A stretch of DNA of 64,000 nt from Paraphaeosphaeria minitans (lineage: Eukaryota > Ascomycota > Dothideomycetes > Pleosporales > Didymosphaeriaceae), in contig WJXW01000003.1 in NCBI GenBank assembly GCA_015832175.1, forward strand, positions 2,542,001 through 2,606,000. Direction: 5' to 3'. The translations under genes were made by a program, and so were the position numbers. The notes under the pieces were generated by a model. That model made no database searches. It was not told the origin of the DNA and saw nothing but the letters and a program-made list of their open reading frames with translations. Shown in pieces: positions 19,561-64,000 of the stretch; the first letter of the stretch is position 1, and the number at the start of each line of letters is the position of its first letter.

Positions 19561-19950
19561 TACTAGATTATTTAAAAATAGATACTAAAATAGAGAGGTT
19601 AGAGAAGTTAGAGGCTAAAAAGGAGGTAAAACTCTATATTAAGAAAGAGCTAGCTAAGGCAGCTCTCCTTCGCGCTTATTAGGCGTAAAAGAAGATAGCG
19701 CGTCTATATAATTAGTAAAAGAAATTACATTAGAAGGAATAAGAATTATTTAATTATAGTATAAGTACTATAGATAAGTTAGAAGCGCTTAAAGCGTAGG
19801 AGGAGTTAGCGTAGGCTATTACGTTAATAAATCCTAACACGCTGTTAGGCGCTAAGGTAATTAACTAGTCTATTTTATAGGCTAGCCCTTATACTAGTAG
19901 TAATTCTTAGGTGCGTCCTAGTTATCTCTTTATAATTTCTAGCGTCTAAT
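19561..19950 (+). pseudogene. decayed antisense accessory frame in gypsy G1
   Basis: Opposite to pol, between the chromodomain and the 3' LTR. The frame starting at phase 19575 reads KIDTKIERLEKLEAKKEVKL then IKKELAKAALLRAY, and later STIDKLEALKA and INPNTLLGAKVIN. The only interruptions are TAG or TAA, the RIP products of Gln codons, with no TGA. It is highly charged and Leu/Ala/Glu/Lys-rich, predicting a coiled coil. Similar coiled-coil segments occur in repeat-encoded fungal proteins. Function unknown. Confidence 0.55.
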
Positions 19951-19984
19951 AATAGAAGTTGTTTATTTATTGTTAATAGTTAGA

Positions 19985-22900
19985 TAGGTTTTCCTTAGGT
20001 TCCTATATATTTTTACTAGACAAATACCCTTTCTATTTAATAAGGTATTCTTTAGTGTCTGTGTACGCGTTACGTACTTATAGGATTTATTCTACTTTAA
20101 ACTTAGTTTCTTCCTAAGCTTGGTAACAGAAGGTGGTTTTAACTAGTGTTTTAGGGTCTACTAGTTCTAGTAGTAATACGTGGAATACTAGGTGTATCTT
20201 TATATCTAGTGGTAGTTCCAACTTATAGATTACTAGTAATATTTGCTTAGAAATATAAAATAGTCTAACCTTAATATAATCTAGTTTCTTGTGTTTTCTC
20301 TTCTAAGTTTAAAAGTTCTTTGTAAGTAAATATGCTTTATCCCCCTTCTTTAGCTAAGGTGCTATTTTTTGTTTTTAATTTTAATAAGAAATTAATTACT
20401 ATTAAGCTTTTTTAAAGTTCTCTTAGAGTTGTTAGTATATTTTCTCTATATTATCTACTATATCTATAGCTTCTTTTGCTTTAATTATTGTAGGAAATTA
20501 TTAGTTAAAGAGATATAGGTGTCTTCTATAGTTTGTATAGAACAGTGTATGTCCTAATACTACTAATACTTTGTTATTATAGGCTAACTATGCTATAGGT
20601 AGTAATAAAACCTAGTTATTTTTTTAACTATTATAGTAGATGCGTAGGTACGTTTCTATAGTTTAGTTTATACGTTCTATCTATCTGTCTATTTATAGAT
20701 AGTAAGCTATTAATAGTTTTTGTTTTGTTCTAAGCAGTGCTATAAGCGTTGTCTAATAATTTAACGTAAAGAGCTTATCTCTGTTGCTAAAAATTATTTT
20801 TAGGATTCTGTAGTGTCTAATTAGTTAGTCTAGGATAAGAAAAGTGAGTTCCTTTACTATTATTCTTTTAAGACATAGAATAAGCTTAACATACTTAGTT
20901 AGTTAGTAGACTACTACTAGTATACTATTGTATTTAATTCTTGTTGTTAGATCCTTAGAGTTTAGAATTCCTGTAATAAAATCTATAGCAATATCTTCCT
21001 ATAGTGCTGTTAGTATTCTAATTGCTTACATCTCTCTATATTTAAGATATGTACTGTGTTTATTTCTCTAGCATTCTACATATTTGCGGATATAAGCTAT
21101 TATAGCTTTCTTAATTCCTTTAAAGGTGTAATTCCTTTAGATAAGTTCTATTATTTTTATAATACCTAAGTGTCCGTACATAGGGTTGTTGTAATATTAT
21201 TAGATAATCTTAGTCTGTAGATATTCTAGAACTTCTTAGTTAATTACTAAAAGTTAATTTAGTTCTACTATTAGCTCTAGAGATCTATCTTTAGCTTTAC
21301 AAAGGATTACAGAGAAGGTTTTTACCTTTTCTCTTACTAGATTACTTTATTAGCTAAGAGTGTCTACTCTACTATTTTCTTTTCTAGCTATATAGATAAT
21401 TTTAAACTTATACTACCCTATAGTTTACAACTATCTTTGTTGTTATAGCGTAAGTTCTTTTATTATTGTGAACTTTAGAAGGTTCTTATAATCTATATAG
21501 ATTTCTAGCGTTAAGTAACTAAGCGTATAAATCCTCTAGTGCTTTAAAGCTTTAACAATAGCGTAGAGTTCTTTGTTATATATATTATATTGTGTTTTGG
21601 CGTTATTAAATTTGCATAAGTAATAGGTAATTAGGTGCTATTTACTATTATATTCTTATTTAGCGTAGATGCGTAGCGTAAGATCGCTAGCGTCTATTTT
21701 AAAGCGCAGTAGTTTATTGCTTTTAAAATAAACAAGAATAGGTTCTATAATACATGCTATCTTAAGAAGTTAGAATAACATTCTATACTTATCTATCTAT
21801 TTAAAGGGTACGTTTTTCTTTATAAGATTTATTAAAGGTATTATAACCTTTACGTAATCTTAAATAAATTGTTAATTAAATCTATAGAATCCTAAGAATT
21901 CTTAGATGTTCTTAGCTATTTTTAGTATTAGCTAGTTCTTAATATATTCAACTTTACTTAGTGCTATCTTAATTCCTTCTATAGTAATAATATGTTCTAG
22001 GAATTTAAGTTATTTAACGTTAAACTTATATTTCTTAAGTTTAATGCAAAGGTATACTTTGTCTAGTGCTTCTAGTACTATCTACACATGCTTAGTGTAG
22101 TCTACTTTATTTTTAGAAAAAATAAGAATATCGTCTATATACGCGATAACAAATATGTCTAGATATTCATAGAGTACGTTGTTAATAAGTGCTATAAAAG
22201 CTGCTAGTGCATTTGTAAGTCTAAATAATATAACTTTATACTTAAATAGTCTATAGCGTGATTAAAACACTATTTTCTATTCTTTACCCTTTTTAATTTA
22301 TATAAGGTAGTAACTGTCTCTTAGATCTATTATTATAAATATCTTAGCTTAACATAGTTAATCTTGTAACTCTATAATATTTAGTAGTGGATATTAGTTC
22401 TTTATTGTTATATTATTAAATTATTAGTAGTTAACGTATAGTCTATCTAATCTATCCTTTTTCTTAATAAATATAAAAGGGCTTACTGCTAGTAACTTTA
22501 ATAGTTATATATATCTTTTCTTAAGGTTTGTCTTAATAAAATTACGTTCTTTAAGGAGTTCTTCACCTGTCTTACTATATAGTAGTCTAAAAGGTGGCCT
22601 CTTCCCTTCTTCTAGGTCTATTATAAGATCCTAGGGTTAATATTTAGGTAGGTTTACTTTTCCTTCCTTTTCTGTAAATATATATATCTATTTCCTATAC
22701 TCTCTTAGTAAGGTAAGGAGTGTGCTATTATCCTCCTTCTCGCGCTTCTTAACCTAGTAGTTCCTGCTAGCGTCTACTAAGGTGTATTTCCGTTTTTTAA
22801 CTATCTATCGCGGTATTATGTTATTAATAACTCCTTTATCTACTATTATTTTTAGTTAATGCGTAGGCTTTACTTATAATATATAATTACAGCGTTTAAA

Positions 22901-25100
22901 TAATATTTTCTTTATACCCTAGTTAATCTATAGGTTATGTATTATTAACTAAAGTAATTCTAAGACTAACTTATGCTTAGATCCTAGTAAGATATCTAAG
23001 GTAAGTTCCTCTCTATGTCTTTAGACTATTATTATAGTAGTAACCTCCTAGTATATCTAAGGTGTCTTAGGCATTAGGGATCTATTCGCGACATAGATAA
23101 TATAAAGTACTTCTTTCTCTAATATTATAAGTCCTACTTATTTTACTATCTAATAAGATATAAAGTTCCTTCCTACTCTTAAGTCTATAAGAGCTTAAGC
23201 CTATATTCCTTTAAGCTATACTAGTAGCTTAACTAATACTATACTTACTATAGCATTTAATTTAATAAAGGCGTTTTCTTATCTAAGTTTAGGCCTAAAA
23301 AAGACATCTATTTATATAGGTTATAGTTAAGTTCTAGTGCCTAGTATACATTTCTAAGCATCTGCTTCTATTATTATTCTTAAGTATATAGCTTGTGTAG
23401 ATTATTTTCTTCTTTTTCCTATAAGGATGTTCTTCTATTATTCCTCTTATAGTCTTTACTATTCCTATGTGCTAGTTAAATTAGTAGTTCTATTATTACT
23501 TCTTATATAGGGCAGTTTGTAAAGCTGTCTAAATGTTTAGCTATATAGTAGTATTCGCAGTCTTAGTTGAGACACGTATACTAGTATAGTTATATATAGT
23601 CTCTATTAATAAGTATATTATAGTATTTATTGCCCTTTAGCGTAAGGTAAGGAAAGTATTTTACTTATTATTTATCCTAGAGGTGTTTATTATAAGCTGT
23701 AATAAAGTAGTCTATCTATATCTATCTACAGCGCTATTTCTTTCTAGGTTATTTTTTATTTTTCTTTTTCTCTATCTTATGTTGTGCGTATATTAGTTCT
23801 TTGTAATACGTCTACATACAGAATTAGTGTGTAGGATTTTAGTAGTCTAGATAGTACTTTAGTACGTAGTCTAACTTCTTATTTTTATAAGGTTACATTC
23901 CTTTTAGTGCCTAGTAGGGTTCTATGTAGTTCTAAACATTTAGTTTATACTTAGGTAATATAGGGTTATCTTCTTCCCGCCTACTTTATAGATAAGAAGT
24001 AGGAGATCTTAGTATCTCTTCTACGTCTTCTGCGTTATAGTATATATTAGAGTCGTCTTCTAGATCTTTGTATAATTATAAGTTAGGTAAATCTAATTAC
24101 TTACTTTACTCTAGTGTAACGCGTTAGTAACTAAATAGTGTTGTAATAACTTTCTATTCCTTATTAGGTTCTTAGTCCTTAATAGTTAGTATATTTAACT
24201 TAGTTTAATAGACTTTATTCTTTAATCTATAGTTCCTTGCTATATAGTCTAGTTTGCTATATATAAAGTATTTACAGGTCTTAGTTATTAGTTATTAACT
24301 TCTATTAGAGACGCGTTTATTAGGCTGCTTAGGGCCTATCCTTCCTCCTTTTCCTTTGCCTAAGTAGTTAAACTAGACATCTTCTATTAGTTTGTATCTC
24401 TAGTAGTTCCTTAGCTGTTACTTTTAGATAATTCTAACAGGGTTCTTATAAACTATTTTTACTAGTTATTTAAAGCTTATTACTCTAGGGTTTTAGTAGA
24501 GCTCCTATTATAGTAAAAACTATTCTCTATTAATCCTAATAGTTTCTTTGTATAGTTCTTTAAGGTTAGTAATTTATATACTACTATGTAAGAGTTCCTT
24601 ACGTAGTTTCTATTTAAGTTCTTGTTTATATATATTCTAGAGAGATTTATTGTCCTAGTTAAGCTGTATAGCGTATCTACGAAACTTAGCTATATACTTA
24701 GCTACTAATTATTTCTAAGTTATAGTCTAAATCTTTACTTTTATAATAGAGTCTTTATTAGCGATCCTTAAGAGTTATTTAAGGTATTTCTTAAAGTTAT
24801 TATAATTCTTAATAATATTAACTATATTAGTGTGCTTGTTTACGTAATTATTATTATTATTATTGTGGTCTATTCCTAGGTACTTTTTAAGGTAAGAATA
24901 GATTTATAATCCTACATCTCTTTATATATATATTACTATAAAGATAACCTTCTTTTTGTCTTTAAGGGGTTTATCTAAGTTAAAGAAGTAGAGGTCTAAC
25001 TAGAGAATCTAGACGTTAGTTTAAGATTATTTGCTAAAGTAGAGATTAGGTTTATACGCCTTACTACTATTCTATATAAGAGTAATCTTAGCGGCACCTA
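19985..25100 (-). pseudogene. decayed gag-pol of gypsy G1
   Basis: Minus-strand remnants of one gypsy polyprotein: zinc knuckle (residue pattern TCKY...SK.D.IARN, with Cys and His codons changed to Tyr), reverse transcriptase, RNase H, integrase and a C-terminal chromodomain. Stops are nearly all TAG or TAA, as expected when CAG, CAA and TGG codons are hit by RIP. The chromodomain implies that the live ancestor targeted heterochromatin marked by H3K9 methylation, by analogy with MAGGY-type chromoviruses. Confidence 0.8.
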
Positions 25101-25154
25101 AAGCTATAGAAGAGGTAAGAGTTTATAAAGTACTTATGTTAAGGGTGTTTAAGA

Positions 25155-25610
25155 TATTAAATCTAAGAGGGTAGCTAGTCCTAAAGGGTTAAGGTTAGTT
25201 CTTAGGCAGGAGTACTTATAGAAGGTAGAAGGTCTTATTAATATAATAGTATCTTATAAAGTGTAATAAGTTAATAATTTAGTCTACTAGAATCTAAATA
25301 ATAGATTAATAAATAGATTAAATATAAGTATAAGAAGCTTATTTTTGCGTTCCTATATACTAAGTAGTCCTACACTTCCTAGAATCCTATATGTCCTAGA
25401 GTCCTATATGTCCTAGAGTCCTATATGTCCTAGAGTCCTATGTGGGCAAGTCTTACGCGTTCTAGAGTTCCTATATAGGCGAGGCCTATGCGGTCCTTAG
25501 GACCCTTAGGACCTATGACTTATTATCTAACTACTTAGTTAGCTAACTCTAGTAGACTAGTAGTCTAATAAGCTCGCGCCCTACTACTTACGCGTAGCTA
25601 GATCCTAATA
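25155..25610 (-). repeat. 5' LTR of gypsy G1
   Basis: 456 bp, plus strand TATTAAATC...GATCCTAATA. It carries the same three 17-bp units at 25385-25435. Differences from the left copy are mainly RIP-type transitions. Confidence 0.9.
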
Positions 25611-25925
25611 AGTGTAAATGCTTTTATTCTACTACTCTTTTTACTTACTTCCTATTAATTATAAGGTAATTTCCCCACTCTTACTAGCTTATAAGTATAA
25701 TAGGCAGGCGCGTTTTAATTAGGAAGGAGCAGTAGTAAGAGAAATAAGTAGTAAAAAAGGAGCGCATTTAGCGCTTAATAATTAGATAGGCGGTAGAGTA
25801 TATAAGCCCTTTACTAGCGCTTAATTTTCTCTCTTTAATCCTTTACTTTTAACACTTTAACTTCCTATCTAATTTAAGCCTACTATTTTAAGCCTTTAAA
25901 TCCTACTACTTTATAGTAAGTTCTT

Positions 25926-26700
25926 TTCTTTTAATTATTACTTTACGCTTTTTCTATTATTTAGAGCTTTACTAACTCTTTTAGATATCTAATAACCTAG
26001 CTAAAGTATACGTAGTAAAGGCTGTAAAAGCTATTAAATAAAGTTCCTAATTCTCCTACTAAGATCCTTTTACTTCTCCTACTCTACTAGCTCCTCCTAC
26101 CCTAGCTCTAGGCCTCTAGCGATCGCTTAGTGCTTTTAGATAAGTAAGCTGCTTAGACTACTTAAAGGGAGCTCTAGTAGAAAAAAGTAATAAACGCTAC
26201 TATAATAACGCTTTAAGTTTAGGTAAGCGCTACTATACCTACTTTACCTACTTTTACACTACTATATATAAGATTATCTTATTACTTTAGCTAATTTTAC
26301 TAATTATTTCTATAGCTAGCTACATATTTAGACTCTAGCTATAGATTTTTTCTGCTATTAACTATTAGAGGGTGCTAATATAAGCTTTTATTTTAAAATT
26401 CTTTTTAGGTTTAGCTAATACTTTTTATAGGAGAGGCTAATTACTAAGCTACGTAAAAGGATTAAAGTAGCCTTATAAGCTCCTCCTTCTACTAGTAGTT
26501 AGGAGGAGTAAGCTTAGTACATAGCTACTATTCTACTACCTCTTTTATAGCTAATCCTTAGTAGAGGATAGAGTAATTACCCTTCTACTCCACCTATTAA
26601 CGAGTAGCGCGGTCGCAGCTAATACACTAATTAAAATAGCTAAATAAGTGGCCTATTAGCTTTAAAGTAGGGTAGAGGGTAGGTAAGTACTTCTCCTCCT
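25926..26700 (+). pseudogene. decayed antisense accessory frame in copia A
   Basis: Plus strand, opposite to copia pol, between RNase H and the 3' LTR (interrupted from it by G1). Segments such as NNLAKVYVVKAVKAIK, DPFTSPTLLAPPTLALGL and DYLKGALVEKSNKRYYNNAL are joined by TAG/TAA only. Clusters of Tyr codons in CxxC-like spacing after LGKRYYTYFTYFY suggest former Cys/His residues, as RIP turns TGC and CAC into TAC and TAC/TAT. Copy B has the counterpart on its minus strand. Function unknown. Confidence 0.45.
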
Positions 26701-29700
26701 ACTAATTAAAAGAGGGAAGGCTAAGGTAAGGAATTACCTATTACTAATTAAAAAAGGGGAGGCTAGGGTAAGCTATTACCTACTACTAATTAAAGGAGAG
26801 GTAGAAGAGGTGGATAGAATAAAGAATTACCTACTATAGAGAAGAGGAGAGAAGGAGGATAGGGAGAATCTCCTACTACTAATTATAGGGGAGATTCTCG
26901 CATCCCTATAATTAAGCAGAAAAGGAAGAGGGTCTATAAGCTTATAGATAAGCTCTTTAATCTCCTTTTCCTCTAATTTCTATTCTTCCTCTAATTTCTA
27001 TTCTTCCTCTAATTTTTTCTTTCTTTTCTTTTTCTTTTTTTATTTCTTAGCTCTAAATTAATAATTCTAAGTAGTTAATAGATTAATTCTCTACTTACTT
27101 ACTCTTATTCTATAATTATTATGCTTATATTTTATAGACTTAATAGCCTTTTAAATCTATTAAACTACTAATAAGTAAGAGCCTTAGTAAAGCTATCTAC
27201 TAGTATTTCGCTAGTTAAAAGATATTCTACTTAAAATAATCCTTTTGTATACTCTTACTATAACTATATATTCTAAATATCTATATAGCGTAGTTAAGTA
27301 GTAATTCTTTCGTTCTTCTTTTTAATCACTAAATAAATAGTTTAAAGATTGTCATAATAGACCTTCTATAAAGGTCCTAGATCTAGAGTAAGCTTAGTAA
27401 AAAATCTCTTAATTACTATAGCTTCTTTACTTATATATTTAAGCGCTAGAAGCTCTACTTCTATTATTAAAGTAGTAATTATGTTCTATTAAGCTACTTT
27501 CTACAGGATAGCTCCTCTAAACAATAGAATAATATATCTATAGGAAGATCGCCGTAATATTAGATTATTAGCAAAAGAGGCATCTCTACATATTAGTAGA
27601 TTAGGTCCATTGTAGCCACTAAAGACTATAGCCTACTATCTAGTTTAATAGAGGTAAAGGATTATATAGTTAATAGCAGCAAAGTGTTCTTTATTTAGAT
27701 TTATTAGAAAGTGTAATAGCTTTAACACTGTAAAGGCTATATCTAGGCGTAGTATAATTACTATATAGAGAGCTAATCCTACCTCTTCTTAAAAGAGCTT
27801 TATTTCTTAAGGAGTGGCTTCTCCTATACTTAGAACAAGATTTTCTACTAATAGAGGTGTAGGAGAGAAGCTCCTAGAGTTTAAAAGATTAAACTTTTTT
27901 ATAATCTTATTAATATAGGTATTATAGACTAGAGAAATTAATCTTACTTCTCTGTCCCTAATTACTTAAACACCTAGGAACCACTCTACTAGTCCTTTTA
28001 ATTTAATCTTATATTTATTCGCAATTTTCTTCTAAAAATCTAGGGCTTCTTTCTCTTTACTCTTGTGATAGAGAAGAAGAATATTGTTAATATAAAATAG
28101 AATAATAATATTTTAATTACTATTAAAGAAAACGCATAGCTCTTCTAGCGAAGCTAAGAGTCTATAAGATTAAAGTAATCCCGCAAATTCCTTATACTAA
28201 AGAAGTGGTAAATTTCTTAAGCTATACAAAGCTTAATTTAATCTTACACACTTTCCTAGCTTTTTAAAACTGTTAGGTAATTTATAAGTTACTAGATTAG
28301 CGGCTGTAATAAAAGTATTTAGAAACGCTCCTACTATATTAAATTATAAGATTTCTAGATTAAATTCTGCTACTAGAGCTATAGCTAATTAAAAATATCT
28401 TACTGCTAGGGTAGTAGCATAGGTAGAGTAGATAGTATTCTTTTTCTAAAAATCTCTTTTTATAATAATTTAAGCTTTGCACTTTTTAAAGTATCTATTT
28501 TAATTAAACTTATAGGTAAAGACCTACTTTAAAGGAAGCAGTTACTCTAATACCTCTAATTATTTAATCTCTGTTTAGGTACCTTTATCTTATAAAGTTA
28601 AGATCTCCTTATAAGTAGTAAGGAGGAATAGCTTCCTATATAAATAATTATAAAGGTGTTTCTATAGGGTTAGCTCTAGTGTAAGATTGTCTCTATAAGT
28701 CTAAGCTGCATAAGACGCTCTAGGCGCCTTTCTAAGCATAGAAACAAATACTATTACATTTAGTGTAATATATTCTTCTTGCTTAAACTAGGCCTTTATT
28801 ACTCTTAGTATAAACATGTGCTCTAATATTATATTAAGATTACTTTAAAAATAATTAGTAATTAGTGTATAAACACCTAGCTTCTACCTACCCCCTAGCT
28901 AATTATTCTAATTATTTTACTTCCTTAATGTTTGTAATAGCAGATAGCGATTTATTAGTTAGTTAATTTCTAGTACTTTACCACAATTTCGCCTACTTAT
29001 TCTACTTACCTCTAGATAGATCTGCCTTCGCCTTTAGCGCGCTAGTAGGTTATCTACTTTATCTAGCGTAATTAAGTTATCTGCGCTAGGATAATTAGTA
29101 ACTTAATTAGTTTCTACTAATAAATAGGGTATTAAATCCCTAGATTCTAGCGGGCTAGCTCTCCTAGTGGTATTCTAGTGGCTGCTAGATATCTCTTAAT
29201 TACTTAATAGATCACCTCTAAGATCACCTAGCTCTAGTGTCTAATTAGGGGTTATAAGTCCTATGCTTCCTTTTCTACTTAAGTAAATTTTTAGCTACTA
29301 GCTAGCTAAGCTTACAGCTTACTTAGTAGTAGGTACTTTAGGTTTCTAATTACTTAGCTAGCCTACTTCGCTTTTAATTACCTAAGGGTTTCCTATAGAT
29401 CTAGTAGTAGTTCTTATATACTTATTTATTTTAGAAAGAATATTAAGCGCGTCTTTATACACTTCTCCTAGATTATTTAGGTCTCTTTCTTAGAGGCTTT
29501 CCACTATTTTTAATAATTCTATTTTTAGAATAGATTATTCTTTTAATCCTTTATAGAACAAGAACTTATTAAAACTTACGTTTTGTGTAGTAATTACTTA
29601 ATTAAGCTAGAGAATCTATATTTAGTAGATATTAGAAGCTTTATAGCCTACTAGGTATCTAATATAGCCCTTAGGATTCACTTTAAATCCTCTTCTATCT

Positions 29701-31625
29701 CGCCTAGCTGTACGCTCCTAATCTAAAGGGTAAGCTTAGTAGCTATAGGCGTAGATAGCATTCTAGTTTTAATAAAGATTAGCTGTCCTATATTATATTT
29801 TTGCTAGTTTACAATAACAAAAATATTGTCTAAACTAAGTATCTAACATTTTATTAGGTGATTAATAGCCTAATACTAGGCTAGGAATTATTTTTTAGAG
29901 CTAGCATGCCGCTTATATAATGTTAGGCTAGAGATTTAATAGCAGATTTACACTTATTTACATTTTAATTACTTTTATTATAAGCTCCTAGCCTACTCTT
30001 TTTATAGCGCCATTAGGCTTATGTGTATAGGGCAGTAGTCTACTAATTATTATCCTTTCCTAATTAGCCAAAAATTTGTACTAGGATTTTCCTCTCTATA
30101 GAAGTGTTACTATATTATTATCCTAGTAGATTTTTGTGATTTAAGGCTCGTATTTTGTATTAATAAGAGCTAAGAAATCCTGCTACACTCTTATTATTTT
30201 AAAAAGCGTCTTTGTTCTAAGATTAAAAACGTAAAGTTTCTTACTAAAATCTTCTTTAATTAGTAAAAACTAGTTTTCTCTATTTTAAGCAGTGGGCATA
30301 TTAAATAGATTCTAGAATAATAAGTAAAATAGTCTAGGTAATTATTCTCTAAGTCTTTTAGAGATTACCTAGGTTACGTGTATAGTAGCATAGTGCTTGT
30401 AATCCTTTCTTAATATTCTAGTAATCTTTACACCTTAGGCTATAGTTACTAGAGCTTATAAAGCTCTACTTCCTATATACCCTACTTAAAGGTGCTAGAG
30501 GTCCTTAGAATCTAATCTCTTAATATTAACCTAGGATAATCCTTTAGTAGTCACACTTATAATAATTAGATAAGAGCAGATTAGCTTATATTATAGAAAA
30601 GTAAAGTTATACTTGTATCTTAGGTCTACTAAAATAACACTTTATTCTAGGCTTCTAATTCTAAGAGTGTAATCTAAACTAAAGTATTAAATCTTTACTT
30701 TCTTTAAAAGAGCTTCTAATATAATATTCACATAAAAGCCTTCTACTACTCTTACTCCTTAGAGTAGTAGATCTTCTATAAATCTCTTATTTTTTCTATG
30801 CAAAGCGTTCTTAATTAGTCTATTACTAATTCCTAAGATTAGGAGGCTTTGTGTACCTACCTCTATACTTTTATTTAATAATTAAAATGTCCTAGAAACA
30901 AGTCTTTTGTAATTATTAACTAGGTAAACTACTATAGCACTGTCTAGTATTATACATTCTAATAAAGAATAAGTGTTAGAATATAAAGTAGAGTAGACAC
31001 CTAATACTCTATTATCTATAGGCAGATTAAATAAGTTTAGTAGAGTAGTAGTAATACTACTAGAATACTTAATAGTCCTAGTAGAGGATTGTTTCTTATT
31101 CTATCCTACCTTTATAATTATATTACAAAGGTTTAACCACTTAGGCTGCTTAAGTAAATTAAGAATCTCTAATTTTTCTTTATTAGTAAGATTAAATAAT
31201 AATATTCTATTCTAAGGTAATCTAGCTATCGCGGTTTAAAGTCTTTAGCACTCTATTAGTTTCTACCTATAAGTATAGGGCTTATAGGGACAGTTTAGTT
31301 GTTTCTTTGTCTAATTAGATAAACTAGAACTATTAGAGTTAGTAGATTGTCTTAATAATCTATTAAAAGTGGCGAATACCCTACTTGTTTTATTAGAACT
31401 AGATTAGATTAAATACTCCTAGATAAGCGCTAAAAATACCTTCCCTAGATTATCTAGCGTAATCTAATTCTATTCTAGTGTCTTATCCTAGATTAGCTAT
31501 TAGTTTATTAATTAGGCCTAATCTAGTGCTATACGCGCGGTAATTATATCTAAAAAATCTTAGGTAGTAAGTAGTCTACTAATTTCGCTAATTAAGTAGG
31601 TTTTCGCTTTTTAATAAAGGAGCTG

Positions 31626-31630
31626 CTACT
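31626..31630. repeat. target-site duplication CTACT (left) of gypsy G2
   Basis: CTACT precedes the left LTR at 31631 and recurs at 38767-38771 after the right LTR. Confidence 0.85.
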
Positions 31631-31823
31631 TATTATAGGCTAGCCTTAGAGAATAAACAGAACTATAAGTGCCAAATATAAAGGATGAATTCTAGGTATT
31701 AAGTCTCTATAGGGGGGTGTGCCGCTTATAAGAAGAGTTTTCCTTATTAGGTCTACTTTTTTTAGGGTAGTTCCTTTCCTTAAAATCCTTCTAAAGGCTA
31801 GGGCTATACCCTAGCCTATTATA
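31631..31823 (-). repeat. 3' LTR of gypsy G2
   Basis: 193 bp, plus strand TATTATAGGC...CCTATTATA, matching 38574-38766 apart from RIP-type changes and matching the G3 LTR (58080-58272) in inverted orientation. Confidence 0.9.
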
Positions 31824-31923
31824 TACCCTAGACCTTACTTAGTTTAAAATATCTTATAGTTACAAGATAAGCCTTAGAGATCTTAAGAGTATTATACTAT
31901 AGTAAGGTAGTAGTATAAAGGCG

Positions 31924-31944
31924 GCCCTAAGGCAGCCTTAGGGC
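31924..31944. repeat. 21-bp near-perfect palindrome in gypsy G2
   Basis: GCCCTAAGGC-A-GCCTTAGGGC: 10-bp arms around one base, followed by GGGCCC. It lies about 100 bp inside the 3' LTR. It might form a hairpin; role unknown. Confidence 0.8.
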
Positions 31945-32279
31945 AAGGGCCCTTACTAGGCAGTTTGTTTATTCACCTTATTATTATAAGGTAATAGGAC
32001 AGCGCTCCTACCCTTTCTAATATAATTATTATGTGTCTGTTGCCTTAGTAGTGCGTTACTATTATAGTTTCCTTATATTTACGTTACTTTGCCTTTTCTC
32101 TTCCCTTCTCTACTCTCTCTTTTCTATACTAACCCTAACCTACGCCTATTTTAACTTCCTTAACTATTTGTGACCACCTCTGTTCCTATCTCCTTTTAGC
32201 CCTAATCTGGTCCCCCCTATTTCTACGCTATACGCCCCTGTGCTTTTATTAGCCTTCTAGCCCTTTTCTTTAGCGTTCT

Positions 32280-33640
32280 ATTCGCGGCCACAGCTAATAT
32301 TAATATTATTAATAACAGCCTCTAAGGTGGCGCCGCCTTAGCAGATCTCTTTAGTCCTAGTAGTAGTAGTAGTAATAACCTTTTAGACCTAAACTAGCGC
32401 CTTACTAAGCCTAGCTATGCGTATACTAAGGAGGAGATTAATAACACTAAGATAGAAAAGATTCTCTAAAGCCTTAATACGCCTACGCAGTAGCCTAATA
32501 GTAGTAATTACCCTTACTTTTTTATAACCTCTAAAAGGCGCGTACTAGCTAATTACCCTAACTCTATTACTCTTACCTATACTCTAAAGCGGCTTTATAT
32601 TACTAAAAGCGTAGTCCTTTAAGGAGATAGTTTAGACAAAGAGCTAGCTAACCCTAATATAGGCCTTATATATATTAAATATATTAGGCGCCTAAGGTAG
32701 CTTAGGCGCATAGAGTAAGTCTATAGTCTTATATTCTAGGCTATTATTAATATTTATATAGCTATTAACTATTCTAGGGCTACTCCTATAGCGCCTACTA
32801 TTACACTAAGGCTACCTACTAGTACAATTCTGCCCCCTTTACTAATAATCTAGGCCTAAGACGGGCTCTGCGCCTCTAAATTAAATACGTAGAGTAAGGC
32901 TAGGTTAATAGCAATTTATATATTTATAATTCTAGAACATATAGCACTAACCCCTAGAAGCCTATAACTAGAACGCTGCCTACTTTTATAGTAGAGTTCT
33001 ACTGCTTAGCTTAGTAATATAAGTAGTACCTAAACTTAGCGCTTAAGAACTCTAGCCTAATTTAGGAGCTAGGCTTCTTTACTATACTTCTACTTTAGCG
33101 TAGTAACAGAATAGTAGTTACCCCCCCTAGTATAGATATAGCCCTAGTGGCACCTTCGCTCTAGATAACTCTAGTCTAGCGTAGTAGTAACTATAATTAG
33201 AATCTAGTAGCGTTAGCTAATTATATAGCGGGGTAGATAAACAATATAGGGAATTATATCTAGTAATCTAAAAAGAGTATAGGCTAGCGTCTAGATAAGA
33301 TAACCTAGACTTAAGTATAAACTGCTAACCTACTCGCCACTATTATAGAGCAACTTAAAATAGCTCCTAGCTAACACTACTCTACCCTTCTAGTGGCCCT
33401 AGCCTAATAGCGTATACCCTTTAACCTGTATTAAAAGCTTTATAGAGTGACTCCGCCTAAGCCTTTGTCTAGGGCTAGCTTAGTATACCCTTCTAGGTGC
33501 CGCTGCTACTAGTGCGAAGAGTAATATAGTTATTATAGCCCCTCTTTATTCTTATCTAGTGTTACTTTAGTGCCGCTTTAGTTATAGCGACCCTAGGGCT
33601 AATAGCCTTTAGTAGTTTTTAGATAGATAGCGCCTCTACT
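32280..33640 (+). pseudogene. decayed antisense accessory frame in gypsy G2
   Basis: Plus strand, opposite to pol. From about 32280 a single frame runs roughly 800-900 nt with only TAG and TAA interruptions and no TGA, including SSSSSNNLLDLN, SYAYTKEEINNTKIEKIL, TSKRRVLANYPNSITLTYTL and VVL.GDSLDKELANPNIGLI. A neighbouring frame continues with SPSGTFALDNSSLA and KQYRELYLVI then KEYRLASR and DNLDLSINC. The Ser/Thr-rich composition and lack of random stops argue for former coding. No domain is recognised; it is not the element's gag, which lies at the other end. Confidence 0.5.
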
Positions 33641-33779
33641 AGGTTAGTAGGGGAATAAATTTTTAAATACCTATTATAGCTTCCCTTATAATATTTATGT
33701 GTTCTTCCCTATAGGCTAAATAAGACTATTATTATGCCTATAGTCCTCCTAGGCGGTCTTAAAGCGGTCTAGAGCTATA

Positions 33780-38572: not shown

Positions 38573-38573
38573 A

Positions 38574-45218: not shown

Positions 45219-45236
45219 GTTATAAGCCTAGCGCTT
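45219..45236 (+). other. primer binding site of copia B (half tRNA-iMet type)
   Basis: GTTATAAGCCTAGCGCTT directly follows the 5' LTR and matches the site in copia A. After allowing RIP changes (TGA to TAA, CCCAG to CCTAG) it fits the complement of the initiator tRNA-Met anticodon arm. Confidence 0.6.
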
Positions 45237-45239
45237 AGA

Positions 45240-50559: not shown

Positions 50560-51600
50560 ACTTATCTAGCTATTTTAATTAGTGTATTAGTTGCGACTAC
50601 GCTGCTCCTTAATAAGTAAAGTAGGAGGGTAATTACTCTATTCTTTACTAAGGATTAGCTATAAGAGAGAGAGTAGAATAGTAGCTATATACTAAGCTTA
50701 CTTCTCCTAACTACTAGTAGGAGAAAAAGCTTATAAAGCTACCTTAACTCTTTTATATAGCTTAGTAATTAGCCTCTCCTATAAAAAGTATTAGCTAAAC
50801 CTAGAAAGAATCTTAGAATAAAAGCTTATATTAGCACGCTCTAATAGTTAATAGTAGATAAAATCTATAGCTAGAGTCTAAATATGCGGCTAGCTATAGA
50901 AATAATTAGTAAAATTAGCTAAAGTTATAGGACAATTCTATATATAGTAGTATAAGAATAGGTAAAGTAGGTATAGTAGCGCCTACCTAAGCTTAAAGTG
51001 TTATTATAGCAGCGTCTATTACTCTTTTCTACTAGAGTTCCTTTTAAGTAGCCTAAGTAGCTTACTTATTTAAGAACACTAAGTAGTTGCTAAAGGCCTA
51101 GAGCTAAGGTAGAAGGAGCTAGTAGAGTAGAAAAAGTAGGAGAATTTTAGTAAGAGGATTAGAAGCTTTATTTAGTAGCTTTTATAGTCTTTACTATGCG
51201 TGCTTTAGCTAAGTTATTAGATATCTAAAAGAGTTAGTAAAGCTCTAAATAATAGAAAGAGCGTAAAGTAATAATTAGAAGAAAAGAACCTACTATAAAG
51301 TAGTAGAATTTAAAGGCTTAAACTAGTAGGCTTAAATTAGATAGGAAGTTAAAGCGTTAAAAGTAAAGGATTAAAGAAAGAAAATTAAGCGCTAGTAAAG
51401 GGCTTATATACTCTACCGCCTATTTAATTATTAAGCGCTAAATGCGCTCTTTTCTTACTACCTATATCTCTTCCTACTACTCCTTTCTAATTAAAACGCG
51501 CCTACCTATTATACTTACTAGCTAGTAAAAGTGGGGAAATTACTTTATAGTTAATAGGAAGTGAGTAAAAAGAGTAGTAGAACAAAAGCGTTTATACTTT
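50560..51600 (-). pseudogene. decayed antisense accessory frame in copia B
   Basis: Counterpart of the plus-strand frame at 25926-26700 in copia A, located between RNase H and the 3' LTR and running opposite to pol. The reading is degraded by RIP but the two copies remain alignable. Function unknown. Confidence 0.4.
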
Positions 51601-51898
51601 AGGCCTTTGTGCTACGCTTATAAGCTCCTAACCCACTAGAAGAAGAGATTCTAGATACGATTCATAATAGGATTTGTGATTTAAAAGATAAACAGTAATT
51701 GTTTTGCTATTATAATAAATAGGAGGTGATAGAATTACTGTTTTTAAGATAAGGAGATTTAGAAGAATAATTCTTAATAGTTTTTTAATCTTTAAACAGC
51801 CTTTAGATAGTTTTTTAAAGATCTTTAGGAAAGATTTAAATAATTAAAAATTACTTCTTAGGATAGGTAATCTGCTTTAAGTAATTACCTAGGGGGTG

Positions 51899-52092
51899 TG
51901 TTAAAGTAAACACTTACTTCTGTAATTCTTTTTAGATCTACTAATTTATATTACAGGATTCTTACTAAGAGGCTTATTTCTTTTGTATATAGTCTGCCCT
52001 TTCGGCATCCTTTCCTACGATTAGCTATTTGTATTCTTTACAACTCTGCTCCTAAATATCCTATAATAGTTTAAGCCCTTTTTACTATAATA
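51899..52092 (+). repeat. 3' LTR of copia B
   Basis: 194 bp, TGTTAAAG...CTATAATA, followed by ATATG. Confidence 0.9.
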
Positions 52093-52097
52093 ATATG

Positions 52098-53207
52098 TAA
52101 TAACAGCACGTTATAAGTAAATAGCGCACGTTGTAAACGTATTATATGTGTTATTTATTATAAGGCTCCTACTCCTTCTATTTGCTATAGCCTTTTATAA
52201 TATAGGGTAGTAGGGCTGTATAGTTTTAATATTGTTTTAATTTTTGTGTGCTCTCTACCTGTATAATATATAAATAATATATTCTTAGTATAGATAAAGC
52301 GCTTAATCTTTAAACAACCTCCTTAATTATCTACAATACTATACTATTTAGTGCCTAAGTATATTAAGAAGTCTAATCTCTATAATACTACTACCTTTAC
52401 GTTTAGTAGAGATACTTAGCGCGTAGACTATAACGCTATACTTATAAATTATATATACTGCGCGTAGAACCTAGTAAAACTCCCTAAGGACTATATAAAA
52501 GATAAAGATAAGCGCTATAACTATTATATTAAAAGTAATTGCGAAGGCTGTAACTTAGTATATCTAGAGTTGCGCAATATATATACGCTTTAGCTAATAC
52601 TTATAGGTGCTAAAGGCGATAAATAGGCGCCTTAATTACCTATACGCCCTTTATAACTGCTACTATATTATAGTTATAGAGACCCTAGATAGGCAGCGTA
52701 AGATAGATAAGTGTGTAAAGGTAGTAGGCTTAAAGCTAGCTTATTACTAAAAGTAATTTAACTTAGAGCTAGCTAACTACTAGTGTATTATAGCTTATAT
52801 TAGTACACTTATAGGTGTAGTAACCTAGGTGCCTACTACTAGCCCTTAGTACCTAGGCTTAATTCTAGTAGAGTAGCGTTAGATTACTAGTGCTTTTAAG
52901 GTAGTTATTCCTTTTATATAGTAGATAGTAAGTTCGCACGTTTTCTACACTTAAAACGTATACTAATAGCTTACCCTAGATTAATCTAGCGTCTACTCTT
53001 TGCCATAATAAGGGCAACTTAGATAATAGTAATAAAGAGAGTAAGGAGGAGGTTACTAGTTTCGCAACAGCCTCTATATACTACCTTAAGTGGTAATACT
53101 ATAAGCGCCTATACAAGGTAGCTTTACTAGCAGATATCTAAGACTATTATCTTGGATAACTAATAGAAGTTTTTTAAAATAATAATATTTATACTAGCAA
53201 AGGAAAG
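52098..53207. other. unclassified RIP-degraded repeat-like DNA
   Basis: No element ends found. On the plus strand one frame (about 52400-53000) reads through TAG/TAA only, with YNYYIKSNCEGCNLVYLELR and LELANY.CIIAYISTLIGVV, suggesting an old coding sequence of an unidentified transposon. Confidence 0.4.
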
Positions 53208-58079: not shown

Positions 58080-58272
58080 TGTGATGGGCTAGGGTATAGC
58101 CCTAGCCTTTGGAAGGATCTTAAGGAAAGGAACTGCCCTAAAGAAGTGGACCTACTAAGGAAAACTCTTTTTATAAGCGGCACACCCCCCTATAGAGACT
58201 TAATACCTAGAATTTATCCTTTACATTTTAGCACTTACAGTTCTATTCACTCTCTAAAGCTAGGCTATAATA
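58080..58272 (+). repeat. 5' LTR of gypsy G3
   Basis: 193 bp, TGTGATGGG...CTATAATA. A hairpin (GGCTAGGG-TATAG-CCCTAGCC) lies at 58087-58107. TATAA at 58172-58176 is 33 bp before ACCTAGAATTTA (58205-58216), the predicted transcript start if the element self-primes. Confidence 0.88.
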
Positions 58273-58273
58273 T

Positions 58274-58285
58274 TAAATTCTAGGT
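58274..58285 (+). other. candidate self-primer binding site of gypsy G3
   Basis: TAAATTCTAGGT, starting one base after the LTR, is exactly complementary to 58205-58216 inside the LTR. Confidence 0.55.
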
Positions 58286-58289
58286 CTTC

Positions 58290-61200
58290 TAGAAAAGAGT
58301 TGTTTAAAGGAATAAAGAAACATAATAGAGTCTAGAATAACCTACTAATAGATAGCTCTAATATTGCTAAGTTAGTAGAACAACTATAGAACTTAATTAC
58401 TACTAGAGACAAAAACTACTCTACTATATAAACACTACAATTTTAGAATAAAGAGCTACGCAAGCTCTTTATACGCTAATAGGCCTACGCTAGCACTACC
58501 CTAGACCTGTTTACCTCTACTATAGGGAGTAGATCCCTATTTACTAGTATAGACTAGCTAATCCTATAGCGTAAACTACTCCTAAGCCTAACTAAGTTTA
58601 GGGGCTTAAAGACATAGTTTAGGGCCTAGAAGGTTATAATAAATTATAAGCTCTAGGCTAATAAGCAGTTTATTAGCTCCCCCTAAAAGAAATAGGCGCT
58701 AATATAGGACTGCCTAGATAATAGTCTTTAAGACATAGTAGCGGCCTTCTACTAAACTAGGGGGGCGGACAGCTAGTTTAACCTATAGATGTTTATACAG
58801 TATCTTACCTTTATATATACTAATAAATACGCCTAGTAAAAGGCTAAAGCACGCCTTAATATAATTAGGTAAGGCCCTAGGGAGAGTTTCTTTAACTTTT
58901 ACGTCCACTTTAAACAGACCTTAGTAGAGGTAAGTAGTAGCTAGTAGGGTAACGCTAAGAAACTGCATAAGTTACGCTACGTAATCTAGCGTAATATCTA
59001 TATAGTTGCCCTTAACTATAATGTTCCTAAAAGGGACTATAACGCGGCTATTACTAGGTTTTTATAGATTATAGTAGACTTTAAAATAGAGGCCCTAGAA
59101 AATAAGCTTACTACTTAAGCTATCTCTTATAAAGGTAGCTAGCCCCCTCCTAAGGATAGTAATAGCAATGTTTATATAACTCCTATAGTAGCTTTAACTT
59201 TAACCTAGCCTTAAGCTAGCGGGGAGGTAGGTAAGTAGCGCCTAAACTAGATACTTAAATATATCTTTTAGTAACGCTAGAATATAGGCGTATATACTTA
59301 CTATAGTAAGCCTAACTATATAGCTAGAGCCTACTCTAATGCAATTTTACTTTAGGCTATTATAACCTAACCTTAGTATAATAAGATAAGCATCTAGTTA
59401 GAAAAAGAATAGCCCTTAGTCTAGCGCTAACGTAGGGGCTAAGCGCAATAGCATTAATAGAGGTATAATTAGGGTAAGCTGCGATAGTTAGAGTAGCTAG
59501 GGCTAGAATAGGTATAAATAGATCTATTCTTACCCTTAACGTCTTCTTTAATAGTATATAGTATATAGAGGCCCTAATTAATATAGAGTGTAAATACTTT
59601 ATAGTAATTAGCCCTAGACTAGTAGATTTACTCTTACTACAGCGCATTATAATTCTAGCCTAGAAGCTAGAATAGGCTGCTAGGTTATTACTATAGACCT
59701 TTATTATAGAGATAGTAGTAGTGCCTTATAATATATCTAGGTAGTAATAGACTCTTTATACTTATATAATCCCTAACCTCTACTAGAATATAATTCTAGG
59801 AGTCCTTTAGCTAGCTAAGTCTAGGGTAGTAGTAAATATCTATAGTAGCAAAATTATAATTAGCGTAGCTAGGGGTTTTATTACTCTTAATACTTAGATA
59901 GTAAAGAGGCAAGGCCTCCTCGCTACGCTAGTAAATAAGGAGGATAATATAACACCCTTTAATACTCTAAATAAAGACTAGAAAAGGGTATTCCTAACTT
60001 TGCTCTAGGATATTACTTAAATACTTATAATAACGCTTCTTTGCACAGTAGGACCTTTACCCCCCTATAATATAGTAGGGCTAGGCCTTACTAAAGATAG
60101 TAGGACTCTCCCCTTAAAACTAGTAGAGTACGCTATTATTTTTAATAAGACTAAGGTGTCTAGCCTTTTACTACACTAGGGCACATTAGACTACTATATC
60201 TACCTAAAGCGGACCCTAAGCAGCTCCCTTTTAAAACTACTCTAGGGCCTACTATATAGCATGTCTAGAGATTAGCTAGTAGAACTCTAGCGCTAACTTA
60301 TAGAACTTATAGATAAAGGCTAAATATAAGCTAGCTCCTCTTTAGTAGGTACTCTAGTCCTTTTAGGCCTAAAGCTTAGGGGGAAATAGCGCCTATGCGT
60401 TAACTATTAGGAGATTAATATAATTCCTAAGCTAGATTAGTACTTTTTTCTACTTATTAAAGAGATACTGCGTACCCTTTTTTAGGCTATTTAGTTTATA
60501 AAGGTAGATATCTACGCTGCTTTCTATAAGCTGTAAGTTATAGAGGGGGAAGAACACTACACTATATTTTATACTTAGTTTAGCCTCTTTAAGTAGTTAG
60601 TAGTCTTATTTAGACTAACTAGGGCACCTACTATATTTTAGCGCTATATTAATAGCGCTCTAAAGGATATCCTAGGCGATATATATATAGCTTACCTAGA
60701 TAATATCTTTATCTATATAATAAGGCCCCTACGCCAATACTAGAACTATATACAATAAGTGCTAGGACTTCTATAAGAAGCTAGACTGTATATAGACCTA
60801 GGGAAATGTAAATTCGCGATAATAGAGGTTAGGTACCTAGGGTATCTTATTATAGTAAGTAAGGCTATTTACCCTAATCTAGTAAAGATATAAGTAATTA
60901 ATTAATAGGACACCCCCTCTATAGTATATATAGTTTACTACTTTATTAGCTTTACTAACTTCTATTATAACTTTCTCCCCTAATTCTTTAAGTAGGCTGT
61001 ACCCCTATATACCCTTACTAAGAAAGGGGTCCTGTTTTAATAGGGCCCTAGGGAATAAGAGGCCTTTTAGGCCCTAAAGGACATATTTATATAGGGCCCT
61101 ATCCTGGCGCTCTAGAACCTAGAGCGCAATACGCTAGTAGAGATAAACTACTTAGGCGGCGCTACTAGGGCCTACCTCTCCTAACGTATTAAGGGGATCT

Positions 61201-63100
61201 AGCACCCTATAGCCTACTACTTTATAGCCCTAACACTAGCCTAGCGGAACTACACTATTTATAATAAAGAGCTACTTATAATTATATAGGCCCTATAAAT
61301 ATAGAGACTAAAGCTAATAAAAGTAGCACACCCCTTTAAAATTCTAATAAACTATAAGAACCTTAAATACTTTATAAAGATCTAAGAATTAAGTAAGCCC
61401 TAGCACTAGTAGTTAGAGTTACTCTTTACCTTTTACTTCTACCTTTACTACTAGCCTAGATCCTAGATAGCTAGACTAGACACACTAAGCTAGCGTAAGT
61501 AAAATATAGCCTAGTAAATGAGAATAAACGCCCTACTAATAGTGCCTAAGACTATTTAGGCTACCCTAGTGTAAACGCAATTTTTAACAGCGCTAGTAGG
61601 GGCTTAGATCTTTACTAACACGCATCTATAGGCACTTTAGAATATAGTTATAGTAAAGTTCCCCCTCTACTATATTAGGCTTAAGGTAGTGCACTGTAGT
61701 AACTATATATTCTTTATAGCAGCTACTACCTCTTAATAAATAAGGGACTATATAATTAGTGCGTATAGGTCCTTTTTATAGCGAGGAGTCTTTTAGGTCC
61801 TAGCTTAAGAACCTCTTATTACTACTATTATATAGCGCGTATATAAGTCTCTAGTTATAGGCTATTTTAGAAAGAACTCTACGTTTAAGATTATCTACTA
61901 GGACTACTACTAGGATAATATATCTAAAAACGTTACCTAATTTATACGTAATTGCTACTACGTAGAAGCGTATATAGACTAGTAGAAGTAGTAAGGTCTC
62001 CTATAGCCACTCCTAATTATAGACTAGTACTAGGCGTAACTCTTAATAGATTTTATAGTAGACCTCCCCTAGGCCTTTATAGTAGCACCGTAATACCTAC
62101 TTATAATTACTAATAGGCTGTTAAAGTATATATAACTAGAAACTATAACTTCTATAATAGTAGAGCACTATACAGCCTACTTTTATAATATATAGTAGTA
62201 GTTCTATAGCTTCTCTACTTTACTAATTATAGATAGAGGCTTAGACTAGCTAGAGAAGTTCTAGACTACGCTATATAAATTAACTAGAATAAAATAACTC
62301 CTCTCTATAGTATACTACCCCTAGACTAACAGCAGTATAGAGAGAGTAAACTAAGAGGTACTCTTAGTCCTCTACATTATAGTTAACTTTAAATAAATAG
62401 ACTACCTAGACTACCTTCTAGCCTACTAGCTTATATTAAATAATAAAGCATCTACTACTATAGGCCTAAGCCTAAACTTTCTACTAAATAGATATTATGT
62501 TAATCTCCTTAAGAGAATCCCCTTACTAGCAGAGTCTACCTATACCCCTACTAGGAGGGTAAAGCACTTCCTAGACTACCTTAAAAAAGGGATAGCTTTA
62601 GCCTAGACTACTATTACCTATAGATAGTAGTGTACTATAGAGGCTATAAACTACACTTACTACCCTATAAAGCGATTCTAAGTTAGAGATAAAATATAGT
62701 TCTCGCTACGTAATATAAAAACTAACTAGCTAAAAAAGAAACTTAACTAGCTTAAGGTTAAGTACACTATAATAGCTATACTATTCTTACTTATAGTAAC
62801 ACTAGACCTACCTAGCGATTTCTATAAGACTATTTATATTAACCTCCTTAAGTAAGCAGTAGACGATCTCTTACCTAGTTAGATCTAGGCTAACGCCTAG
62901 CTAGGCCTAGCCTTAGAGCTAGAAGAAGCGGATCTAGACCTACGTAAATAGAAAGTAGAAAAGGTCCTACGTATTAAGAATACCTAGGGAAAATAATAAT
63001 AGGCGCTAGTAAAATAGACTAGATAGGTATTACTAACTTAGGTGCTAGTTAAAAATATTATAGATACTACAGCTCTAGACCGCTTTAAGGCCGCCTAAGG
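58290..63100 (+). pseudogene. decayed gag-pol of gypsy G3
   Basis: Best-preserved copy of the family polyprotein in the window: gag (about 58290-59350) including the zinc knuckle, RT, RNase H, integrase and terminal chromodomain. Nearly all interruptions are TAG or TAA. Confidence 0.78.
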
Positions 63101-63109
63101 GGACTATAG

Positions 63110-64000
63110 GCATAATAATAGTATTATCTAGTCTATAAGAAAGAATACATAAATATTACAAAGGAAGCTATAATAGGTATTTAAGAATTTATTCCCCTAC
63201 TAACCTAGTAGAGGCGCTATCTATCTAAAAACTACTAAAGGCTATTAGCCCTAAGGTTATAATAACTAAAGCAGCACTAAAGTAACACTAAATAGGAATA
63301 AAGGAGAGCTATAATAACTATATTACTATTCGCACTAGTAGTAGCAGCACCTAGAAGGGTGCACTAAGCTAGCCCTAGATAAAGGCTTAGGTAGAGTTAC
63401 TCTATAAGGCTCTTAATATAGGTTAAAGGGTATACACTGTTAGGCTAGGGCTATTAAAAGGGTAAAGTAGTGTTAGCTAGAAGCTATCCTAAGTTACTCT
63501 ATAATAATAATAAGTAGGTTAGTAGTCTACGCTTAGGTCTAAGTTATCTTATCTAGGCGCTGGCCTATACTCTCTTTAAATTACTAGATATAATTTCCTA
63601 TATTATTTATCTACCCCGCTATATTATTAGCTAACGCTACTAGATTCTAATTATAGTTACTGCTATACTAGGCTAGAGTTATCTAGAGCAAGAGTGTTAC
63701 TAGGGCTATATTTATACTAGAGGGGGCGACTACTATTCTATTACTACGCTAAGGTAGGGGTATAGTAGGGGAGCCTAGCTCCTAGATTAGGCTAGAGTTC
63801 TTAAGCGCTAAGTTTAGGTACCACTTATACTACTAGGCTAAGCGGTAGAACTCTACTATAAAGGTAGGTAGCGTTCTAGTTATAGGCTTCTAGGGGTTAG
63901 TGCTATACATTCTAGGATTATAGATATATAAATTACTATTAACCTAGCCTTACTCTATATATTTAATCTAGAGGCGCAAAGCCCGCCTTAGGCCTAGGGT
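63110..64000 (-). pseudogene. antisense accessory frame of gypsy G3, partial
   Basis: The region after the chromodomain is homologous to 31824-33700 of G2 in inverted orientation, so the antisense frame runs on the minus strand here and is cut by the window end. Confidence 0.45.

What the first reader, a model, noticed from the sequence alone, without database searches (positions are those of the whole stretch)
19561..63999. Antisense accessory frames between pol and the 3' LTR in three different LTR retrotransposon families
G1 (plus strand 19561-19950), G2/G3 (32280-33640 plus; 63110-64000 minus) and copia A/B (25926-26700 plus; 50560-51600 minus) each have, on the strand opposite to pol and next to the 3' LTR, a frame interrupted almost only by TAG/TAA, the codons RIP makes from Gln and Trp codons. 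Two copies of each of two families carry it in the same place. The predicted products differ: a charged coiled coil in G1, a Ser/Thr-rich protein of several hundred residues in G2, a possibly Cys/His-rich protein in copia. Presence in both copia and gypsy elements suggests repeated capture and a shared benefit, for example antisense regulation or a host-interacting protein.
Basis: partly seen in the sequence, partly recalled or inferred. Interest (0 to 1): 0.78.

Follow-up and report, generated by a model that had tools for sequence, protein, structure and literature searches.

The report
One likely antisense gene, not three
In a fungal genome whose mobile elements have been riddled with mutations by the fungus's own defence, one retrotransposon family probably once carried a small extra gene beside its right end, most likely on the opposite strand; a second may have and a third was not shown to, and such backward extra genes are already known from plants and one other fungus.

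Summary
Partly supported. Frames broken "almost only by TAG/TAA" prove nothing here: RIP has removed TpG, so TGA averages 0.3 per 1-kb frame over all six frames. The paired copies differ mostly by transitions, so sharing the place is not independent evidence, and dN/dS cannot be measured.

G2/G3 family: the region beside the 3' LTR does hold a former coding segment. Its period-3 signal is the strongest of the 600-nt windows scanned (chi2 55.9; 44.9 with a microsatellite masked; pol median 21). Best reading: an antisense ORF of 162 or 207 codons, 32230-32718 or -32853, starting at a codon still ATG in 11 of 26 copies and opening with a hydrophobic, signal-peptide-like stretch. The claimed frame to 33640 fails, and the G3 coordinates lie almost wholly outside the ORF. 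A sense-strand reading is not excluded.

G1: a charged frame in the phase of 19560 (not 19561), weaker signal, no heptad pattern. Copia: no consistent frame; ancestral-type TGA stops interrupt it.

No relatives were found, but the protein-database searches had no positive control. [quoted passage not shown] Boty brtn).

The parts
32230..32853 (+). G2 candidate antisense ORF: start at 32230 (ATG/ATA), end either 32716-32718 (162 codons) or 32851-32853 (207 codons); now broken by RIP-type stops
   Evidence: Period-3 chi2 55.9, 44.9 masked; left edge of the signal 32225-32241, right edge about 32804; 12 stop columns in 220 codons to 32889, fewest of six frames; ATG in 11, ATA in 15 of 26 copies; hydrophobic residues 5-19 in 26 of 26 copies
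31822..32229 (+). Leader between the G2 3' LTR and the candidate ORF; a promoter here is inferred, not tested
   Evidence: Position between LTR and ATG; 2-nt indel at 32216 polymorphic between copies
31633..38764 (-). G2, Ty3/gypsy element nested in copia A, LTRs 31633-31821 and 38576-38764
   Evidence: RNase H domains on minus; LTR pair 7 transitions, 0 transversions
33740..37190 (-). G2 pol coding signal (minus, phase 2)
   Evidence: Pfam RT_RNaseH_2, RT_RNaseH
19560..19859 (+). G1 candidate charged antisense frame (phase 0); weak evidence
   Evidence: Period-3 p=0.003 for 19570-19869; in-phase signal ends at 19859; charged 33%; 11 of 107 codon columns carry stops
18866..25610 (-). G1, Ty3/gypsy element nested in copia A; chromodomain-like end of pol near 19955
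   Evidence: chromo 19.8 bits, below its cut-off of 25.1; LTR pair 32 transitions, 0 transversions
50292..51494 (-). Copia B: claimed antisense frame (phase 0), not supported as one ORF
   Evidence: TGA/TAA columns at 50826 (TGA 3 of 24) and 51471 (TGA 4 of 24); period-3 peak only over a 42-nt tandem repeat
25926..26700 (+). Copia A: same claimed frame, second copy; G1 separates it from copia A's 3' LTR
   Evidence: 20 stops in 257 codons in the best plus frame
18353..39645 (-). Copia A, interrupted by G1 and G2
   Evidence: LTR pair 18 transitions, 0 transversions
45023..52103 (+). Copia B
   Evidence: RVT_2 on plus, E=7.4e-16; LTR pair 16 transitions, 0 transversions
58084..64000 (+). G3, second copy of the G2 family, cut by the window end; the claimed frame 63110-64000 (minus) lies almost wholly outside the ORF

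Best explanation
The G2/G3 Ty3/gypsy family carried, before RIP silenced it, a small accessory ORF between pol and the 3' LTR, most likely antisense to gag-pol, of 162 or 207 codons, starting at 32230 and reading towards pol. I think it was expressed from its own promoter in the 0.4-kb leader beside the 3' LTR and made a small protein that entered the secretory pathway or a membrane, serving the element in a regulatory or particle-related role. Shown: a coding-type period-3 segment with an edge near the ATG, its presence in many copies, and the hydrophobic start of the frame. Favoured but not shown: the antisense strand. Inferred: promoter, expression, secretion, function. G1 may carry an unrelated charged ORF in the same place; for copia none is shown.
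For: Period-3 chi2 at 32240-32839 is the highest of the windows scanned and stays high with the microsatellite masked (44.9; 39.9-55.1 over 30 rows, four of them identical tandem copies; pol windows median 21.3, max 28.8 over 59). Other periods are flat. The signal's left edge (32225-32241) falls at a codon that is ATG in 11 and ATA in 15 of 26 copies, the change RIP makes. Residues 5-19 are hydrophobic (median Kyte-Doolittle 2.47) with no stop in the first 19 codons in 26 of 26 copies; 0.17% of 93,706 windows in the AT-rich part reach this. Stop columns 12 of 220, fewest of six frames. The shared 2-nt indel lies 14 nt before the ATG, outside the frame. 130 genome matches to the frame. Kind known from other elements.
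Against: The same period-3 pattern fits the minus frame of the same register; that frame has no TGA/TAA column in 32200-33000 and a stop in 26 of 26 copies at 32257, near the edge. The Helitron stretch shows that the mirror of a coding frame can have fewer stops than the coding frame. The cross-family codon model does not call the segment coding on either strand (30% and 61% of null frames score as high), though it ranked the true pol frame first in only 7 of 11 controls. In the ORF 7 of 12 stop columns are universal and one copy has a 2-nt insertion at 32309. No homologue was found.
Confidence: 0.5

Rival explanations
1. The G2 segment was a sense-strand (env-like) third ORF after pol, and the antisense frame is only its mirror image.
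For: RNY-type composition is nearly symmetric; minus phase 1 has no TGA/TAA column in 32200-33000; the Helitron mirror frame has fewer stops (36 of 533) than the coding frame (44 of 533); a stop in 26 of 26 copies at 32257 could end it.
Against: More stop columns (16 against 12) and more universal ones (11 against 7); the G1-trained codon model scores it lower than the plus frame in 4 of 4 windows over 32240-32989; no comparable start.
Confidence: 0.2
2. No gene: the frames are chance openings in compositionally biased, RIP-altered non-coding DNA.
For: TGA scarcity is general; copia and the rest of the G2 region show no consistent signal; no homologues found.
Against: The G2 period-3 signal is far outside other periods and above pol, in all 30 rows tested.
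Confidence: 0.12
3. One reading: all three families captured antisense genes for a shared benefit.
For: G2 good, G1 suggestive. In copia 5 of 5 indels of 3 nt or more starting in 50284-51750 are multiples of three, which would suit coding on either strand; minus phase 1 has no TGA/TAA column in 50292-51890.
Against: Copia's claimed frame holds TGA/TAA columns; two of the five indels match tandem-repeat units of 18 and 42 nt, and two lie at one place (51126, 51132); no period-3 over most of it; products unlike each other (A1 against A3 not run).
Confidence: 0.1

Closest known systems
Antisense additional ORFs between pol and 3' LTR of plant elements (Grande gene23, RIRE2, Retand, PvRetro13; PMC7264820, PMC11963269)
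   Same: Place, probable orientation, presence in many copies, no known relatives.
   Different: Fungal; product looks secretory or membrane-bound rather than nuclear or DNA-binding; sequence relation not tested; no expression data.
brtn of Boty-like Ty3/gypsy elements of Botrytis cinerea (Zhao et al. 2011, not held; known here from citing papers PMC7264820, PMC8365987, PMC4227169)
   Same: Fungal gypsy element with an additional antisense gene; Boty's gag-pol has a chromodomain, as G1 seems to.
   Different: brtn sequence not available here, so no homology can be claimed; in G2 no chromodomain was detected.
Env-like sense ORFs between pol and 3' LTR (Athila, Bagy2; PMC7264820)
   Same: Place; hydrophobic or membrane segments.
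   Different: Sense strand; this is only the rival reading of G2.

Membership tests
Antisense additional ORF between pol and 3' LTR | Lies between pol and the 3' LTR | tested here: met
   G2: pol signal ends near 33740, ORF 32230-32853, LTR ends 31821
Antisense additional ORF between pol and 3' LTR | Coding strand opposite to gag-pol | tested here: inconclusive
   Antisense favoured by stops, start and edge; sense not excluded
Antisense additional ORF between pol and 3' LTR | Present in most copies of the family | tested here: inconclusive
   130 matches in the genome, but the number of family copies lacking it was not counted
Antisense additional ORF between pol and 3' LTR | Sequence conserved as a protein (as reported for plant cases) | tested here: inconclusive
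   Copies differ almost only by RIP transitions; too few transversions
Antisense additional ORF between pol and 3' LTR | Transcribed from its own promoter (Grande) | not testable with these tools
   No RNA data
brtn (Boty) | Sequence homology to brtn | not testable with these tools
   brtn sequence and paper not held

The most novel reading that the evidence does not exclude
A fungal Ty3/gypsy family encoded, on the strand opposite gag-pol and beside the 3' LTR, a small secreted or membrane protein under its own promoter: an antisense accessory gene of a secretory kind, unlike the nuclear or DNA-binding ones reported in plants, with an unrelated charged antisense ORF in a second gypsy family of the same genome.
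Probability: 0.25. Interest if true: 0.6.

Novelty: new member of a known kind. Interest (0 to 1): 0.36.

Why it matters
Antisense accessory ORFs are described mainly from plant elements and, in the papers I saw, from one fungal element group; none has an agreed function. A second fungal family, possibly with a secretory-type product, would widen the kind. On method: under near-saturated RIP, counting TAG/TAA proves nothing, whereas period-3 composition, ATG/ATA and TGA/TAA columns and indel lengths can still carry the imprint of an old gene.

Tried and rejected
Stop counting alone: rejected, TGA is scarce in all frames, and the 1-kb frame with fewest stops (55850-56849, plus) is antisense, in the same register, to a DUF6570/Helitron-like reading.

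Universal-stop runs per frame: the pol frames also carry many, so RIP is too saturated.

dN/dS or transversions by codon position: 0-7 transversion columns per region shared by two or more copies, no power.

Codon models: one trained on G1 pol outlines the pol genes but gives the 3' frames weak scores; the cross-family one ranked the true pol frame first in 7 of 11 control stretches and does not decide the 3' frames.

Pfam: matches in pol frames; in the antisense frames nothing near a cut-off (A2: YpmT in 5 of 17 rows, best E 0.02; A1: none in 11 rows; single frames). Profile comparisons A2-A3 and A1-A2: nothing.

Protein database: A1, A2, A3, nothing at E<=10. All 3 searches went to these queries and none to a pol control, so I do not know whether fungal element proteins are in reach; these negatives are weak. 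IMG/VR: A3 and A2, no relatives, also without a control.

Coiled coil in G1: hydrophobic power at period 3.5 is not raised, so 'charged', not 'coiled coil'. From memory I thought the G1 frame resembled a repeated fungal protein type; no call supports this.

G2 as a host-gene capture: no stop-free relative longer than 31 residues among 130 genome matches.

Structure prediction and fold search: not run. Organism: not identified; that it is a filamentous ascomycete is inference from RIP, not tested.

Full report
What is there. From 17 kb on the window is AT-rich (26-38% GC per kb), with TpA/ApT of 1.8-2.3 in the elements against 0.66 in the first 16 kb. It holds a copia element (A, minus, 18353-39645) into which two gypsy elements are nested: G1 (18866-25610, LTR 454 bp) and G2 (31633-38764, LTR 189 bp). 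A second copia copy (B, plus, 45023-52103) and a second G2-type copy (G3, plus, from 58084) follow. Pfam places pol on the stated strands for copia B, G2 and G1; G1's pol ends in SH3- and chromodomain-like matches just below and below their cut-offs. The four LTR pairs (G1, G2, copia B, copia A) differ by 32, 7, 16 and 18 transitions and no transversion: recent insertions, changed almost only by RIP.

Why the first argument fails. TGA occurs 0.32 times per 1-kb frame over all six frames of 17.1-64 kb, out of a mean of 36.1 stops, as expected where RIP has removed TpG. The 1-kb frame with the fewest stops (15, at 55850-56849 plus) is the same-register mirror of a minus-strand reading with DUF6570 (E=1.9e-8) and a weak Helitron_like_N match (E=0.084). 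Over 55350-56950 the mirror frame has 36 stops in 533 codons and the coding frame 44. A low stop count therefore does not tell a gene from its mirror.

Tests that still work. (a) Period-3 composition, with pol as positive control and other periods as null. (b) Codon columns that are ATG/ATA or TGA/TAA between copies: RIP turns ATG to ATA and TGA to TAA, so TGA/TAA columns mark ancestral-type stops (or CGA codons). In the true pol frames there are 0 of 510 (G2) and 1 of 840 (G1) such columns; in the other five frames 0-2 of about 510 and 1-11 of about 840, so absence alone says little. (c) Indel lengths. Rows: G2, 29 loci plus window copy and G3, minus four identical tandem copies (L018-L021) = 27 (26 over most of the ORF, which G3 does not reach); G1, 17 loci plus window copy, minus four duplicates (L049, L050, L051, L053) = 14; copia, 10 loci plus window copies A and B = 12, later 12 more = 24. 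The loci are among the best-scoring places, not a random sample.

G2. Of the single-copy 600-nt windows scanned (3-16 kb and 18.9-64 kb without 39.7-45.0 kb), the one at 32240-32839 has the highest period-3 chi2, 55.9; the best host-gene window has 46.5, the Helitron stretch 34.5, the G1, G2, G3 and copia coding stretches at most 30.7. Part comes from a TAG microsatellite at 32358-32374; with 32350-32384 masked it is 44.9, and 39.9-55.1 over 30 rows (the four tandem copies included), against a median of 21.3 and a maximum of 28.8 in 59 pol windows. On multi-copy columns p is 4e-7 for 32240-32539 and about 0.5 for 32951-33700. A scan trained on 32300-32620 puts the left edge at 32225-32241 and the right edge near 32804, with a dip at 32711-32740. 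The plus frame in phase 1 has 12 stop columns in 220, fewest of six, 7 of them universal. At 32230 it has ATG in 11 and ATA in 15 of 26 copies, and residues 5-19 are hydrophobic in 26 of 26. Its end is either 32716 (TAA in 25, TGA in 1 of 26) or 32851 (TAG in 27 of 27). In 130 genome matches a TGA is listed in 2 (column not identified). Beyond 32890, 38 of 250 columns carry stops and 33448 is a TGA/TAA column (TGA in 3 of 27), so the frame 'of several hundred residues' to 33640 is not borne out. The shared 2-nt indel at 32216 (20 copies with, 6 without, the window copy among the latter) lies before the ATG; one copy has a 2-nt insertion inside, at 32309.

Strand of the G2 segment. The composition is of the RNY kind and nearly symmetric. 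For antisense: fewer stop columns (12 against 16), fewer universal stops (7 against 11), the ATG at the signal's edge, the hydrophobic start, and higher scores than the minus frame in 4 of 4 windows under the G1-trained codon model. For sense: no TGA/TAA column, a stop in 26 of 26 copies at 32257 near the edge, and the Helitron precedent. The cross-family codon model supports neither strand. I put antisense at about 0.7 given that the segment was coding.

G3. Window 63997 pairs with G2 32850, so 63110-64000 covers almost only the unsupported part; the matching ORF is mostly beyond the window end.

G1. The frame that reads as a charged protein is in the phase of 19560. It shows period-3 at p=0.003 (19570-19869; 0.006 for 19561-19950), stays in phase to 19859, beyond the training stretch, and then stops. 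Charged residues reach 33%, met by 0.6% of 97-codon windows, but hydrophobic residues show no 3.5 periodicity. Stop columns are 11 of 107, lowest of six frames there by little and like pol; TGA stands at 19560 in 1 of 14 copies. All 150 listed genome matches carry stops, 9 of them a TGA. Suggestive only.

Copia. The claimed minus frame (phase 0) has 9.2% stop columns with 12 rows, lowest of six. With 24 rows, TGA/TAA columns appear in it at 50826 (TGA in 3) and 51471 (TGA in 4), and three more beyond 51495. The only clear period-3 peak (50350-50699, p about 1e-4) covers a 42-nt tandem repeat. In favour of some coding: 5 of 5 indels of at least 3 nt starting in 50284-51750 are multiples of three (18, 42, 9, 6, 75), though two match tandem-repeat units and two lie at one place; single-base indels also occur there in single copies. 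The minus phase-1 frame has no TGA/TAA column in 50292-51890 and only 6 of 131 stop columns in 51495-51890, but no period-3 signal there. I leave copia as not shown.

Relatives. Three protein-database searches with multi-copy alignments (A1 copia, A2 G2, A3 G1) gave nothing at E<=10; no pol control was run there, so this says little. In the own genome 130, 150 and 110 matches were listed for the G2, G1 and copia frames (the last two capped); all carry stops except two G2 pieces of 31 and 26 residues. The G2-G1 and copia-G2 products show no similarity to each other.

What it works like. [quoted passage not shown] Grande's gene23 has its own promoter and a nuclear product. PMC11963269 (abstract and discussion) reports antisense coding regions in this place in all recently active Retand clusters. 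Boty's brtn is known to me only through citing papers: PMC8365987 and PMC4227169 (passages) and PMC7264820. So the kind is known in fungi. Searches listed no other fungal case that I recognised from titles and abstracts, but most subscription papers are not held.

Verdict. One probable member of a known kind (G2), one candidate (G1), one not shown (copia). Interest is modest unless the secretory-type start and the antisense strand are confirmed in an intact relative.

Noticed in passing
G000:C21:11825-41585 (L017-L021): Five G2-family copies in tandem at a constant 6,940-bp spacing, about the element's length minus one LTR; the five 5,001-base stretches are identical, RIP changes included. Either amplified after RIP, or an assembly artefact.
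   Followed up: partly
53500-57900, minus: RIP-altered stretch with DUF6570 (E=1.9e-8) and a weak Helitron_like_N match; its mirror frame on plus has the fewest stops of the 1-kb frames counted.
   Followed up: partly
32216: A 2-nt indel splits the G2 copies 20 to 6 (window copy among the 6), so two sublineages multiplied.
   Followed up: partly
51126 and 51750: Copia copies differ by a 9-nt and a 75-nt deletion shared by 10 and 5 of the 23 other rows, hinting at subfamilies.
   Followed up: no
41086-44866 and 53213-53699: Partly similar direct-repeat families (D1, D2, D4) between and beside the elements, about 60-95% alike.
   Followed up: no
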